Positions 45 through 5,569 of a stretch of 7,486 nt of DNA are shown here, piece after piece. Position 1 is the stretch's first letter; every line of letters starts with the position of its first letter. The translations under genes and the position numbers were made by a program. The notes under the pieces were generated by a model that was not told the origin of the DNA, made no database searches, and saw nothing but the letters and a program-made list of their open reading frames with translations. Source of the DNA: an uncultured Flavobacteriales bacterium. GTDB lineage: Bacteria > Bacteroidota > Bacteroidia > Flavobacteriales > Crocinitomicaceae. The stretch covers positions 1 to 7,486 of the forward strand of contig CAMLDR010000199.1 in the NCBI GenBank assembly GCA_946478775.1, in the 5' to 3' direction.

Positions 45-755
45 ATGAAAACAATCACATTTATCGCAGCTTTATTTCTGACAGGAATAACTTTTGCACA
101 AAACACCTTCGGCGATATCATCGGGACTTTTACTACTGCGGATAAGAAAGAAGGGATCTTCGGAGCCTATGCCGTAACAACCCGCGGAGACCAGGTTTTC
201 AAGGCCGTAACCGATGAAGACGGTAGATTCCGTATCTCCGCTGTTCCTGCGGGTACTTACAAAGTATTTTTCATTACAATCGAAGGTGATACAACTTATG
301 CTCGTGAAGAGGTAGATGTTGCACCGGACGGATATGGAAACACCGGTATTGTTGCTCAATCAAAAATTAATGAATTGGATGAGTTTAAAGTGGTTGCCGG
401 ACCACCAAGTCTGAGACTGGGAGTAACTCCTGAAATCAAACTAACAAAAAAAGACATCGTTCACATGCCGGTAAAATTCGATGCGAAGCAAATGGTGGCA
501 TCCATGACTTCAGATGTAAAACTAACCGATGACGGAGAATTAATCTTTCGTGGAGCACGCAAAGGAGATGTTATCAGCTACATCGACGGAGTGAAAATGA
601 ACGATGTTCAAAATGTGCCGAGTGCTGCTTTGGGATATGTGATGGTTTACTCCGGAGCAATTCCGGCAAAATACGGGGATACTACCGGCGGAGTGGTGGT
701 AATGGAAACGTTGAGCTACTTCGATCTGTTGAGAGAATACAATAACAGACCATAA
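45..755 (+). CDS. Exported carboxypeptidase-regulatory-like and TonB-plug domain protein without a beta-barrel
   Basis: The 236-residue product starts with a signal peptide (residues 1-19, cleavage likely after TFA-Q). Residues about 22-90 look like a carboxypeptidase regulatory-like beta-sandwich (VTDEDGRFRISAVPAGTYKV). Residues about 140-222 look like a TonB-dependent receptor plug, with FRGARKGDVISYIDGVKM and a closing GDTTGGVVVMET. In SusC-type receptors these two modules precede a 22-strand barrel of several hundred residues; here the protein stops 14 residues after the plug. The reading frame is intact and ends with TAA, and only about 80 bp separate it from the next structure, so no barrel fragment follows. 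It is therefore probably a genuine short periplasmic or outer-membrane-associated protein rather than a recent truncation. ATG at 45 is the only start that gives the signal peptide; no clear ribosome binding site is seen. The precise role is unknown. Confidence 0.85.
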   Translation: MKTITFIAALFLTGITFAQNTFGDIIGTFTTADKKEGIFGAYAVTTRGDQVFKAVTDEDGRFRISAVPAGTYKVFFITIEGDTTYAREEVDVAPDGYGNTGIVAQSKINELDEFKVVAGPPSLRLGVTPEIKLTKKDIVHMPVKFDAKQMVASMTSDVKLTDDGELIFRGARKGDVISYIDGVKMNDVQNVPSAALGYVMVYSGAIPAKYGDTTGGVVVMETLSYFDLLREYNNRP

Positions 756-801: not shown

Positions 802-834
802 AAAAAAACGGTTGGGGCGCGATTAATCGCGCCC
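802..834 (-). terminator. Perfect 20-bp GC-rich palindrome with T run, probable terminator of the ancestral manC end
   Basis: Positions 815-834 read GGGCGCGATTAATCGCGCCC, identical to their own reverse complement. Read on the minus strand the palindrome lies 3 nt after the stop codon of the orphan manC 3' end. It is followed, after 6 nt, by seven T residues (complement of the A run at 802-808). That geometry fits an intrinsic terminator for leftward transcription. The GC-rich arms could also belong to a dispersed palindromic repeat family; only a genome-wide count would tell. Confidence 0.5.
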
Positions 835-837
835 TTA

Positions 838-933
838 CTATTTCGGGAAAAACTCCGGGCTCGTCTCTTCCATCGGAGCCATGTATTTCTTCAGATTCTG
901 TTCGTCGTGCTGGTTCAGGATCATCAGCATATT
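838..933 (-). pseudogene. Orphan 3' end of manC (31 codons plus stop), left-hand copy of a 96-bp direct repeat
   Basis: Translating the minus strand from 933 gives NMLMILNQHDEQNLKKYMAP followed by MEETSPEFFPK and a TAG stop. This matches residues 332-362 of the complete ManC at 2154-3242, except Q353 to E and G358 to E. At DNA level 871-933 is identical to 2187-2249 (63 bp), while 838-870 differs from 2154-2186 at eight of 33 positions. Homology ends abruptly at 933/934. The fragment has no upstream part and no start that would give a functional enzyme. It is best read as the original end of the manC gene, displaced from its body by insertion of the segment to its right, because the terminator-like palindrome sits directly behind it. 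Confidence 0.85.
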
Positions 934-939
934 TTAATT

Positions 940-1251
940 CTACTCAATAATATTACTATTTATTCCCGCCCAAGGTGCTGAGGGTAAAACTATACACTTT
1001 TTCAACTCTATTCTTGGATTAAGAGAATTAACCGGGTCACTATTCAATAGCTGAATTATCTGTTGAATCTCAACTAATGCATCAGCAACGTTAGTATTGG
1101 GTTTCCAAACAGCATTCGACGGTAAAAGAGTTCTAGTTTTTTGACCAAACTCATTCGTTGTCGTCCATGCATTATAATATCCTTTACTAATCAATATTCT
1201 TTTGATTTCTTCCTCTTTACTTGAAACTTCAAATATTATTACTGAGTTCAT
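940..1251 (-). CDS. Small protein with a possible Cas2/VapD/SinR-like ferredoxin fold
   Basis: The 103-residue product is the last gene of the three-gene insert operon. Its pattern is a first beta strand (NSVIIFEVS), a helix (SKEEEIKRILISKGYYNAW), a strand with LLPSNAVWKP, a long helix (VADALVEIQQIIQLLNSD) and a last strand ending in CIVLPSAPWAGI. This order, with a W after the second strand and a terminal strand followed by WAGI, resembles Cas2/SinR-like proteins of the VapD superfamily. The usual acidic residue after strand 1 of active Cas2 nucleases (YDxxD) is not present; only E8 is near. There is no cas1 and no CRISPR array. Start ATG at 1251 lies 5 bp after the upstream stop, so translation is probably coupled; no Shine-Dalgarno is seen. 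The fold call is by eye and moderate at best; the function is unknown. Confidence 0.7.
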   Translation of the reverse strand: MNSVIIFEVSSKEEEIKRILISKGYYNAWTTTNEFGQKTRTLLPSNAVWKPNTNVADALVEIQQIIQLLNSDPVNSLNPRIELKKCIVLPSAPWAGINSNIIE

Positions 1252-1256
1252 GAGTG

Positions 1257-1559
1257 TTATTTATTATTGAGATACTCTCTTCTTAAGAATGAAATCATTC
1301 CAAGAATATTACCAACTATTAGATCAACATATTGATTGCCTGCATTCCCTAGTCTTCGTTGAGAAATAAAACTTTCATATGAGTGAAAACCTCTAGATCT
1401 CATCGTATTGAGTAAATAATCAGGTTCAACAACAACTAAGAAATCATTCAAATTCTTAAGATCGTCAACTGTCTGAGTATTATTTAATAATCTTTCTTCT
1501 AATTGTACTAAAAAATTTTCTGTCAAATTAGAATTCTTTGCCTCTCCCATTACAATCAT
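1257..1559 (-). CDS. 100-residue protein of unknown function, middle gene of insert operon
   Basis: I do not recognise this family. The protein has no signal peptide or membrane segment and appears mostly helical: an amphipathic stretch (LTENFLVQLEERLLNNTQTVDDLKNLNDFL, residues about 12-41) and a second part with SRGFHSYESFISQRRLG (residues 55-71) and a hydrophobic helix VDLIVGNILGMISFLRREYL. Its ATG overlaps the TGA of the upstream gene in an ATGA arrangement, and the end of that gene supplies an AAAGGAG ribosome binding site, so the pair is translationally coupled. A second ATG three codons in could also be used. Tight packing on both sides says it works with the two-TM protein and the Cas2-like protein. 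Confidence 0.75.
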   Translation of the reverse strand: MIVMGEAKNSNLTENFLVQLEERLLNNTQTVDDLKNLNDFLVVVEPDYLLNTMRSRGFHSYESFISQRRLGNAGNQYVDLIVGNILGMISFLRREYLNNK

Positions 1560-2083
1560 TCTCCTTTTTGTTCGTTTGTACCTTTTCTCTGTTTTTGAGA
1601 TAAATCATGCTCTGTTTGAATCTCACCAACTAGTCGTTTCGCCTCACCTAGATGTTGATTAATTTGGGTTTCCAATTCCTTAAAATTATCATCTAAATAT
1701 TGTTTAGTTTCATTCTTTGCTCTAACTGCAACAGAGATATTTATCAATAATAGCAAAGTGATTACGATAGCTCCAAAAGCATACAAATCATCGAATCGCT
1801 GATTTATCGAACTTATCTTCTCATTATATATATTTCGCTCATTCAATAAATTCTCTTGTAAACTATCAATCTTATCTATTGTCTCATTTACGTTTTTTGA
1901 ATGCGGATTGTCCTTTGAAAAAAGAGAATCTTTTGAGTCGATCAAATAAACAGGATGTATATTATGATTTTCGACCTTCAAAGGAACAGAATTTCCTATT
2001 ACCAAATAAACAATTAATGCTAAAATTATTCCAAATAAAACTCCCCAAAGAATTTTAGGATCAGAAACATCTTTAAATCTCAT
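1556..2083 (-). CDS. Two-TM coiled-coil membrane protein, first gene of insert operon
   Basis: The 175-residue protein has a short N-terminal tail, a membrane helix at about 11-30 (ILWGVLFGIILALIVYLVIG), a hydrophilic loop at 31-99 whose second half (65-98) looks coiled-coil, a second helix at about 100-119 (LYAFGAIVITLLLLINISVA), and a charged C-terminal tail (121-175) with another heptad-like stretch (127-160). By the positive-inside rule both ends are probably cytoplasmic and the loop periplasmic. No enzymatic motif is visible. It overlaps the next gene by 4 bp. ATG at 2083 is preceded by an AT-rich leader without a clear Shine-Dalgarno. Such small membrane proteins next to cytoplasmic partners occur in toxin or effector modules, but nothing here proves that; family unrecognised. 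Confidence 0.75.
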   Translation of the reverse strand: MRFKDVSDPKILWGVLFGIILALIVYLVIGNSVPLKVENHNIHPVYLIDSKDSLFSKDNPHSKNVNETIDKIDSLQENLLNERNIYNEKISSINQRFDDLYAFGAIVITLLLLINISVAVRAKNETKQYLDDNFKELETQINQHLGEAKRLVGEIQTEHDLSQKQRKGTNEQKGE

Positions 2084-2099
2084 CTAATAAAAATAATAC

Positions 2100-2131
2100 A
2101 AAAACGAGAATTTCACAAATTACTTTACTCG
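2100..2131 (-). terminator. Weak terminator-like hairpin between manC and the insert operon
   Basis: On the minus strand, CGAG (2131-2128) and AATTT (2121-2117) pair with AAATT (2113-2109) and CTCG (2108-2105), with a 6-nt bulge and a 3-nt loop. Five T residues (2104-2100) follow directly. It lies 23 nt after the manC stop and 17 nt before the start of the two-TM gene. If functional it would separate the insert operon from manC transcription, leaving little room for a new promoter. Confidence 0.3.
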
Positions 2132-2153
2132 ACAATCTGTTTAACCAGAACCT

Positions 2154-2249
2154 TTATTTAGGAAAGAATCCCGGGCTCGTTTCTTGCATCGGAGCCATGT
2201 ATTTCTTCAGATTCTGTTCGTCGTGCTGGTTCAGGATCATCAGCATATT
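2154..2249 (-). repeat. Right-hand copy of the 96-bp direct repeat (active manC 3' end)
   Basis: This copy forms the last 31 codons and TAA stop of the complete manC. Positions 2187-2249 are identical to 871-933. The final 33 nt (2154-2186) carry eight differences from 838-870: three synonymous sense codons in P361, F360 and F359, a stop change (TAG/TAA), two changes in G358, one synonymous change in E354 and one change in Q353. Under the insertion model this end was brought in by the element. Confidence 0.85.
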
Positions 2250-3242
2250 GTCTGACTCCACTATAATGTAATTCTCCAGTCCCTGGATCAAAGCAAGCTT
2301 GTTATTTGGAAGATTGACGATACAATTTTCAGAGTTTATCATGTGTACGTTTTCTCCAATAACAGCATTTCCATTGTAATCTTTTTCCAGGTGTGAATAC
2401 AAACTTCCCCAGGTCCCCAAATCGGACCAATCGAAATTGGACAAGACCACATCTACGTTCTTCGCATTTTCCATCACTGCAAAATCGATCGAAATATCTT
2501 CACAGGCTGCAAAAGAAGCATTCACATACGACTGTTCTTGCGGAGTATTGTATTTCTGTGATTGATCGGTGAACAAATGGAACAATTCCGGTTTGAACTT
2601 TTCAAGCGCATTCAAAATGGTTTTTGCACGCCAGATAAAAATTCCGGAGTTCCAGTAATAATTTCCGCTTCTCAGGAAAATTTCAGCCAGTTCACGATTC
2701 GGTTTCTCTGTAAAATGCTTCACGTCTTTCACCTGTCCGGGAAGAATATCGCCATCTTCTACAAACTCAATATACCCGTAACCGGTATCAGGCCGTGTTG
2801 GCTTAATTCCCAAGGTTACCAAACGATCTTCTTTATTCGCTGTGGAAATGGCCGTATGGACGATCTCGGTGAATTTATCTTCTTTCAGGATCAAATGATC
2901 GGAAGGAGCAACAACTAAAGTTGCATTCGGATTGATTGCATGGATCTTTGCAGCTGCGTAGGTAATACACGGAGCCGTATTCTTTCTTTCCGGTTCTGTC
3001 AGGATCTGTCCGTCACTCAGCTCAGGAAGCTGTTCTTTCACCAAAGAGAAGTAATTTGCGTTGGTCACAATGTATATATTCTCAGCCGGAGCAATGTGCA
3101 ATAAACGCTCAAAAGTCATTCTCAGTAGCGATTTCCCTATTCCAAGTACATCCAGGAATTGCTTGGGGCGCTGAACAGTAGACATAGGCCAAAAACGGCT
3201 GCCGATCCCACCGGCCATGATAACGCAGTAATTATCTTTCAT
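2154..3242 (-). CDS. manC: Mannose-1-phosphate guanylyltransferase
   Basis: The 362-residue enzyme transfers GMP from GTP to mannose 1-phosphate, giving GDP-mannose for glycans and polysaccharides in the cytoplasm. The nucleotidyltransferase signature MAGGIGSRFWPMS lies at residues 9-21 with RPKQ at 25-28. Further family motifs are TEPERKNTAPC (82-92), APSDHLI (112-118), FTEKPN (177-182), WNSGIF (197-202), SIDFAVME (251-258) and the WSDLGTW block (272-278). It is the single-domain form without the C-terminal isomerase domain. ATG at 3242 overlaps the end of the SprT-like gene by 11 bp, so the two are cotranscribed. Its last 31 codons are duplicated at 838-933, and the segment between the copies appears inserted, so its terminal eleven codons are probably of foreign origin while still coding for a normal end. 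Confidence 0.93.
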   Translation of the reverse strand: MKDNYCVIMAGGIGSRFWPMSTVQRPKQFLDVLGIGKSLLRMTFERLLHIAPAENIYIVTNANYFSLVKEQLPELSDGQILTEPERKNTAPCITYAAAKIHAINPNATLVVAPSDHLILKEDKFTEIVHTAISTANKEDRLVTLGIKPTRPDTGYGYIEFVEDGDILPGQVKDVKHFTEKPNRELAEIFLRSGNYYWNSGIFIWRAKTILNALEKFKPELFHLFTDQSQKYNTPQEQSYVNASFAACEDISIDFAVMENAKNVDVVLSNFDWSDLGTWGSLYSHLEKDYNGNAVIGENVHMINSENCIVNLPNNKLALIQGLENYIIVESDNMLMILNQHDEQNLKKYMAPMQETSPGFFPK

Positions 3243-4805: not shown

Positions 4806-5569
4806 TGATTGAAGTTGTCAACATCAATAAAACTTTTGGAGATAGCCACATCCTGAAAGACGTCAGTGCTACCTTCGAAAAAGGAAAGGTAAACCTGATT
4901 ATCGGTCAGTCAGGCTCCGGAAAATCGGTGCTTGCAAAATGTATTGTGGGCCTGCATGAAGTGGATTCAGGCCAGGTCTTGTATGACGGAAGGGATTTTA
5001 CCAGAATGGACCGTATGTCACGCAAAGAAATCCGAAAGGAAATCGGGATGCTGTTCCAGGGATCTGCTCTTTTTGATTCCATGACTGTGGAGCAGAATAT
5101 CATGTTCCCTCTCACGATGTTTACCAAAATGAGCCGAAAAGAAATGCAGGAGCGTGTTGATTTTTGCCTGGAAAGAGTAAACCTTGCAGGAAAAAACGGA
5201 CTCTACCCGGCTGAATGTTCCGGAGGTATGCAGAAACGGATTGCCATTGCCCGAGCTATTTCCATGAACCCGAAGTACCTGTTTTGTGATGAACCGAATT
5301 CAGGGCTTGACCCGCAGACATCTATTCTGATCGATAACCTCATCCGGGAGATCACTCATGAATACGAGATCACTACTATTGTGATTACACACGATATGAA
5401 TTCCGTGATCGAGATCGGGGAAAGTGTGATTTTCATCAATAAAGGCCAGAATTGGTGGAACGGCGACCGCAAATCCATTATTACCACGGATAACCCGGAA
5501 ATCAACGATTTTGTCTTTGCTTCGGACTTTATGAAGGAGATTAAAGAGACCTTGAAGAACACGAAGTAA
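4805..5569 (+). CDS. mlaF: MlaF-type ABC transporter ATP-binding protein
   Basis: The 254-residue ATPase powers the MlaE permease. Walker A is GQSGSGKS (34-41), the Q-loop is Q85 in LFQGSALF, the signature is CSGGMQKR (138-145), Walker B is YLFCDEP (158-164) with catalytic E163, and the H-loop is H196 in ITHDMN. All catalytic elements are intact. The CSGGM signature and EPNSGLDP D-loop are typical of the Mla/Ttg2A subgroup. The ATG shares one base with the mlaE stop, and no Shine-Dalgarno precedes it. An MCE-domain (mlaD) gene would be expected next in many genomes but is not found; the following gene is an L,D-transpeptidase after a 119-bp gap with an inverted-repeat structure. Confidence 0.93.
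   Translation: MIEVVNINKTFGDSHILKDVSATFEKGKVNLIIGQSGSGKSVLAKCIVGLHEVDSGQVLYDGRDFTRMDRMSRKEIRKEIGMLFQGSALFDSMTVEQNIMFPLTMFTKMSRKEMQERVDFCLERVNLAGKNGLYPAECSGGMQKRIAIARAISMNPKYLFCDEPNSGLDPQTSILIDNLIREITHEYEITTIVITHDMNSVIEIGESVIFINKGQNWWNGDRKSIITTDNPEINDFVFASDFMKEIKETLKNTK

What the first reader, a model, noticed from the sequence alone, without database searches (positions are those of the whole stretch)
838..2249. Three-gene cargo inserted at the 3' end of manC, with the gene end duplicated
Seen: a 96-bp direct repeat of the manC 3' end brackets about 1.2 kb of AT-rich DNA with three small genes, and homology ends abruptly at 933/934. Known: many integrative elements target gene 3' ends and carry a copy that restores the gene. 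Inference: the segment 934-2249 is such an insertion, unusual in using a protein gene rather than a tRNA, in being only 1.3 kb, and in having no recombinase. It could be a satellite mobilised in trans, or a swap hotspot where different cargo sits behind manC in related strains.
Basis: partly seen in the sequence, partly recalled or inferred. Interest (0 to 1): 0.78.

Follow-up and report, generated by a model that had tools for sequence, protein, structure and literature searches.

The report
Three-gene cassette inserted behind manC
A freshwater bacterium has gained a tiny block of three linked genes exactly behind a sugar-metabolism gene, with that gene's end copied so that it stays intact; distant relatives of the same three genes ride with a jumping gene on a viral sequence and in part sit among known bacterial conflict genes, so they look like a small, undescribed mobile conflict module.

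Summary
Confirmed, with refinement. The manC 3' end is present twice (839-933, 2155-2249; 88 of 95 bases identical: 63 in a row, then 7 differences in the last 32). Between them lie three co-directional genes, A, B, C. The distal copy is an in-frame displaced manC end with the native terminator-like hairpin behind it. In 9 of 9 aligned close relatives manC runs uninterrupted across the junction, so 934-2249 is a 1,316-bp insertion whose proximal manC end restores the gene.

The cassette is the surprise. Protein search returned only the query proteins, but profiles found complete A-B-C operons in one distant genome and on an IMG/VR contig, there with an IS1595-type transposase between inverted repeats. 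B recurs in three more genomes, once inside a type I restriction operon, once behind HicA/HicB. C is predicted ferredoxin-like, closest to GhoS.

How it inserted is unresolved: no integrase, transposase or inverted repeat in the insert, and no second manC end beside manC seen in 240 family genomes. A circle carrying a donor manC end fits best, through a recombinase in trans, one since lost, or RecA. A swap hotspot is not supported; function is inferred from context only.

The parts
2154..3242 (-). manC (mannose-1-phosphate guanylyltransferase), intact, ending in the inserted 3' end (...MQETSPGFFPK*)
   Evidence: Pfam NTP_transferase E=9.6e-43; TIGR01479 E=3.1e-87, below its curated cut-off; relatives 90-97% identical
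2155..2249 (-). Proximal copy of the manC 3' end, which restores manC: 2155-2186 diverged tail, 2187-2249 identical 63-nt block
   Evidence: 88 of 95 identical to 839-933, all 7 differences in the last 32 nt
1556..2083 (-). Gene A, 175 aa; two membrane segments around a coiled-coil-like loop (read by eye, no predictor run)
   Evidence: Local scores against A of G323, the viral contig and G315: 128, 157, 154, each reached by 0 of 300 shuffles
1257..1559 (-). Gene B, 100 aa, predicted all-helical
   Evidence: Scores against B of G323, viral contig, G315, G848, G106: 99, 105, 95, 68, 81, each reached by 0 of 300 shuffles; single-sequence AF2 pLDDT 79.5, best Foldseek PDB E=4.8
940..1251 (-). Gene C, 103 aa, predicted ferredoxin-like fold; best solved match GhoS
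934..2249 (-). Whole 1,316-bp inserted unit: cassette plus proximal manC end
   Evidence: 0 extra bases at the junction in 9 of 9 aligned relatives
838..933 (-). Distal, displaced manC 3' end (31 codons plus stop, no start), native by position
   Evidence: In-frame remnant, contiguous with the downstream region
806..843 (-). Terminator-like hairpin (GGGCGCGATTAATCGCGCCC, U-run some bases later), now behind gene C
   Evidence: Fold -18.8 kcal/mol, z -2.77. The consensus scan called this palindrome only on the plus strand and listed no terminator-like site on the minus strand in 700-2400
45..755 (+). Convergent gene with carboxypeptidase-regulatory-like and TonB plug similarity; usual downstream neighbour of manC
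   Evidence: Pfam matches just under their cut-offs; next to manC in 16 of 20 relative loci

Best explanation
A small, probably circular DNA carrying a donor manC 3' end followed by A-B-C recombined once within the native manC 3' end. The product is manC completed by the donor end, then A-B-C, then the displaced native end and its terminator-like hairpin. manC stays intact and the cassette probably becomes the distal part of its transcription unit. The crossover was most likely made by a site-specific recombinase supplied in trans or since lost; RecA acting through the 63 identical bases is the close second. The cassette belongs to a recurrent Bacteroidota module (membrane protein A, small helical protein B, often small ferredoxin-like protein C) found with IS1595-type transposases and beside restriction and toxin-antitoxin genes; its most likely role is an addiction or anti-phage module. 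Shown: insertion, gene restoration, empty sites, recurrence of A-B-C, its place inside a transposon-like unit on a viral contig. Inferred: circle, recombinase, co-transcription, function.
For: Repeat and in-frame displaced end; 9 of 9 aligned relatives uninterrupted at the junction. Both tails fall within the spread of ends in relatives, so the proximal one can come from a sister lineage. Complete A-B-C in the same order in G323 (L140) and on IMG/VR contig 3300021438_000027 (L181), the latter with an IS1595-type transposase between 43-nt inverted repeats, 77% complementary (score reached by 0 of 500 shuffles). B with A in G315; B behind HicA/HicB in G848; B between HsdS and an SMC_N-like ATPase in an HsdR-HsdM-HsdS operon in G106. 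Fold of C.
Against: No recombinase gene in the unit. No other manC with a second end beside it among 240 family genomes, which a manC-specific integrase would lead one to expect; one genome per species, and manC at contig ends hides some cases. No inverted core symmetry beyond chance in the 63-nt block (80 of 500 shuffles as good). No gene-end repeats found around the other A-B(-C) loci. GhoS likeness is fold only: Z just under 8, no Foldseek match at E 0.001, no significant sequence match. The A-like ORF of G848 is only marginally related (7 of 300 shuffles reach its score to window A) and that of G106 not detectably (52 of 300).
Confidence: 0.5

Rival explanations
1. Linear DNA from a sister lineage that already had A-B-C behind its manC entered the cell; one end recombined homologously in manC upstream of the repeat, the other joined illegitimately at 933/934 (homology-facilitated illegitimate recombination). 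This gives the same repeat without circle or recombinase.
For: Needs no integrase; explains single use of the site and the sister-like tail. The process is described in PMC3240628 (abstract and section list seen).
Against: By eye, identity along manC to nine relatives shows no clear break upstream of 2249, although the bin 2250-2358 is lower (73-80%) than those after it. The needed donor, A-B-C behind manC, was not found in 14 genus genomes (the tool warns that an empty answer without a positive control shows nothing).
Confidence: 0.25
2. Remnant of an IS1595-type transposon that lost its transposase and ends.
For: An IS1595-type transposase lies near C in 4 of 6 C loci counted: L140 (2 bp), L181 (46 bp before A), L141 (about 190 bp), L174 (about 2.8 kb); a different DDE transposase in L131; none in the window. 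Left out of the count: L142-L146, with a shared chromosomal context, and L147, a partial hit.
Against: No inverted repeat at the window's insert ends (best score reached by 282 of 500 shuffles); transposition would not supply a manC end that differs at 7 bases.
Confidence: 0.08
3. Assembly chimera: strains with and without the cassette joined through the 63 identical bases.
For: Metagenome contig; short identical block; no reads available.
Against: The join of cassette to manC interior at 933/934 still needs a real junction; the protein search counts C on two contigs and lists a 97-aa copy of B with a longest contig of 888 bases.
Confidence: 0.08

Closest known systems
Mobilizable islands at gene ends: trmE 3' end (SGI1), yicC 3' end, dusA 5' end (PMC8409611, passages seen)
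   Same: Inserted at a gene end; at dusA the element supplies a diverged replacement of the lost coding end
   Different: The elements listed there are about 23-37 kb and site-specific through their own int; here 1.3 kb, no recombinase, target manC
IS1595-family transposons with passengers (MTnSag1 and tISCpe8 in PMC5704250, passages seen)
   Same: On the viral contig A-B-C lies with an IS1595-type transposase within inverted repeats
   Different: The window copy has neither transposase nor inverted repeats
GhoS, VapD and Cas2 small ferredoxin-fold proteins
   Same: Predicted fold of C
   Different: No significant sequence match; one C member matches the NCBIfam cas2 model only at E=0.092; partners A and B match no family above a curated cut-off
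Toxin-antitoxin pairs as passengers of Tn3 transposons (PMC7157771, title and start of abstract in a listing)
   Same: Small linked genes as recurrent transposon passengers
   Different: Other transposon and gene families; toxicity of A, B, C untested

Membership tests
Integrative element at a gene 3' end | Direct repeats, element restores the gene | tested here: met
Integrative element at a gene 3' end | Empty site in relatives | tested here: met
   9 of 9 aligned relatives
Integrative element at a gene 3' end | Integrase or recombinase gene inside the element | tested here: not met
   ORFs and family scans of A, B, C
Integrative element at a gene 3' end | Same site used by other elements | tested here: not met
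   221 of 240 genomes matched; the three second matches are on other contigs. Short or distant displaced ends and ends lost at contig edges could be missed
Integrative element at a gene 3' end | Excision and circular form | not testable with these tools
   No reads or strain
IS1595-family transposon (window insert) | DDE transposase and terminal inverted repeats | tested here: not met
IS1595-family transposon (viral contig L181) | IS1595 transposase and inverted repeats around A-B-C | tested here: met
   PF12762 E=4.8e-27; inverted repeats 2704-2746 and 5058-5100
IS1595-family transposon (viral contig L181) | Short target duplication (8 bp, recalled) | tested here: inconclusive
   No matching flanks at the ends as read
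GhoT/GhoS toxin-antitoxin | GhoS fold in C | tested here: inconclusive
GhoT/GhoS toxin-antitoxin | Membrane toxin controlled through RNA cleavage (recalled) | not tested
   Needs experiment
Known anti-phage system (PADLOC) | Clear match to a defence model | tested here: inconclusive
   Only weak matches, best PD-Lambda-1 E=0.0063, PDC-M14B E=0.007, KwaA E=0.0071, not consistent between family members

The most novel reading that the evidence does not exclude
A-B-C is an undescribed conflict system in which a membrane protein and a small helical partner form the effector and a GhoS/VapD/Cas2-like protein is its control or trigger. It is spread by IS1595-type transposons and a phage, with B also lodged in restriction and toxin-antitoxin loci, and here it exists as an integrase-less micro-element that inserts behind a protein gene while repairing that gene.
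Probability: 0.3. Interest if true: 0.72.

Novelty: new variant of a known kind. Interest (0 to 1): 0.5.

Why it matters
Gene-end insertions are well known, but one of 1.3 kb without any recombinase is a minimal case for asking what such an insertion needs. It also exposes a family of three tiny genes that ordinary protein search did not see, yet which recurs in Bacteroidota beside a transposase, on a viral contig, and in part in restriction and toxin-antitoxin loci. If it is a defence or addiction module, small divergent systems of this kind are being missed.

Tried and rejected
Protein searches returned only copies of the query proteins. Viral scans with single window proteins confirmed no relative; alignment A4 none; A5 and A8 one contig, the same one that its own A protein found. 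tblastn with window C on plasmids and phages: none; with relatives' proteins: none for L181 B and A on phages, L140 A and L181 C on plasmids. Solved-structure sequence searches: nothing convincing for C or B (the best, E=0.0028 to a designed filament, passed no stretch on its own). The A alignment on the 11 genomes of G323's order gave only G323 itself, which is in the alignment, and a weak G386 hit. Of 8 genomes hit by the B alignment, I read three neighbourhoods: G848 and G315 kept, G940 (L163) dropped as an unrelated HTH-like ORF; the other five, with long or broken frames, were not read. Of 5 hit only G106 was read and kept. G018's and G111's short manC pieces lie at contig ends and are not displaced ends. 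Rfam: no match at gathering score. Repeats around other loci: two-copy families of 26-43 nt in two of seven regions (L182, L174), none a gene-end pair around the module. Papers: none of the 10 listed of 231 holds the name of the manC product; 10 of 13 papers naming Fluviicola and mobile genetic elements were listed, none opened; some searches gave listings, of which PMC5704250 and PMC3240628 were opened; PMC8409611, was opened.

They placed the second manC-tail matches, confirmed HicA, HicB, HsdR and HsdM by Pfam, and showed that the A-like ORFs of G848 and G106 are marginal and undetected relatives; the text was mended, the odds were kept.

Full report
What is there. The window reads as a Fluviicola-like contig: the closest named relatives of its manC are two Fluviicola MAGs at 90%, and unnamed family members reach 97%. 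No genome is held for it. manC (2154-3242, minus strand) is intact. Its last 95 bases recur at 839-933: 88 of 95 identical, 63 in an unbroken run on the gene-internal side and all 7 differences in the last 32. The distal copy is an in-frame, start-less manC end followed by a terminator-like hairpin and a convergent gene with TonB-plug similarity. Between the copies lie A, B and C, on the same strand as manC, in AT-rich DNA.

It is an insertion. In an alignment to nine close relatives the manC sequence crosses the junction with 0 extra bases in 9 of 9. In 20 relative loci (L111-L130), 16 have the plug-domain gene directly behind manC; G058 and G070 have a 522-aa and a 243-aa ORF in between; G002 and G071 have other neighbours; no repeated manC end was seen. 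Across the 19 relative tails read the 63-nt block is 46-62 of 63 identical, and both MEE- and MQE-type ends occur. The proximal end is therefore well explained as coming from a sister lineage and the distal one as native by position; tail similarity alone does not decide it (L111 is nearer the proximal copy, L116 nearer the distal).

It is not a demonstrated hotspot. A 50-residue manC tail matched 221 of 240 family genomes, with a second match in G015, G040 and G111. One search places all three second matches on another contig: a 152-aa frame, a 339-aa frame at 41% identity, and a 38-aa piece at a contig end. Displaced ends of about 31 residues could be missed in distant genomes or where manC meets a contig end, and one genome per species is held.

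The cassette is a recurrent operon. Single-protein searches returned only copies of the queries. C alone gave matches in 48 of 240 family genomes at E 1 or better, of which only G010 (3.2e-4, 103-aa frame) reached 0.001; G112 (0.031) also covers nearly the whole of C in an open frame. An alignment of those three C sequences matched 23 of 395 class genomes at E 0.1; apart from G010, which is in the alignment, the strongest was G323 (2.2e-16), which has A and B directly before C with 4-nt overlaps. An A alignment found IMG/VR contig 3300021438_000027, which carries A, B and C in order behind an IS1595-type transposase (PF12762, E=4.8e-27) between 43-nt inverted repeats. Pairwise scores between the three copies of A, of B and of C are each reached by 0 of 300 shuffles. 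A resolvase gene, and a ThyX-like gene matching just below its cut-off, lie on the same viral stretch.

B travels further. B alignments hit 8 of 395 phylum genomes and 5 of 399 order genomes at E 0.01; those whose neighbourhoods I read and kept are G315, G848 and G106, and their B scores to window B are reached by 0 of 300 shuffles. G315 has a clear A (score 154, 0 of 300) beside STAS/ATPase, DUF4325 and PIN-like genes. G848 has HicA and HicB (Pfam) and an A-like ORF that is only marginally related (7 of 300). G106 has HsdR, HsdM and HsdS before B and an SMC_N-like ATPase, below its cut-off, after it; its coiled-coil ORF before B is not detectably related to A (52 of 300).

Mechanism. A circle with a donor manC end and one crossover explains every junction. 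Site-specific integration commonly leaves a restored gene end (general knowledge); PMC8409611 reports the same logic at dusA, where the element supplies a replacement end (passages seen). Against it: no recombinase, no second use of the site, no core symmetry above shuffles (80 of 500). RecA-dependent single crossover after circularisation of linear DNA, and homology-facilitated illegitimate recombination, are both named in the abstract of PMC3240628 and remain open. I give the circle reading 0.5 and linear recombination 0.25.

Noticed in passing
window 815-834; L111 8094-8121 and 8946-8973; L113, L114, L115, L116: Long perfect palindromes share the centre GATTAATC with different arms: 7 of 12 palindromes with arms of 9 or more in 207 kb of 13 relative loci, on both sides of the plug gene in L111 and L115. 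They look like a dispersed terminator or REP-like family.
   Followed up: partly
L122 7419-8987; L124 7154-7885: In G058 and G070 a different co-directional gene sits directly behind manC, without a manC repeat seen.
   Followed up: partly
L141/L183, L174, L131/L173: C-like genes without A or B lie near transposases, two of them near HTH_3-type regulators.
   Followed up: partly
L142-L146: Another C subfamily (105-111 aa) sits in a shared chromosomal context in five genomes, near a DUF6272 gene (Pfam run on the L143 copy only), which suggests a domesticated branch.
   Followed up: partly
window 871-933: The 63-nt block is more conserved between nine close relatives (86-98%) than the adjacent manC bin 2250-2358 (73-80%).
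   Followed up: no
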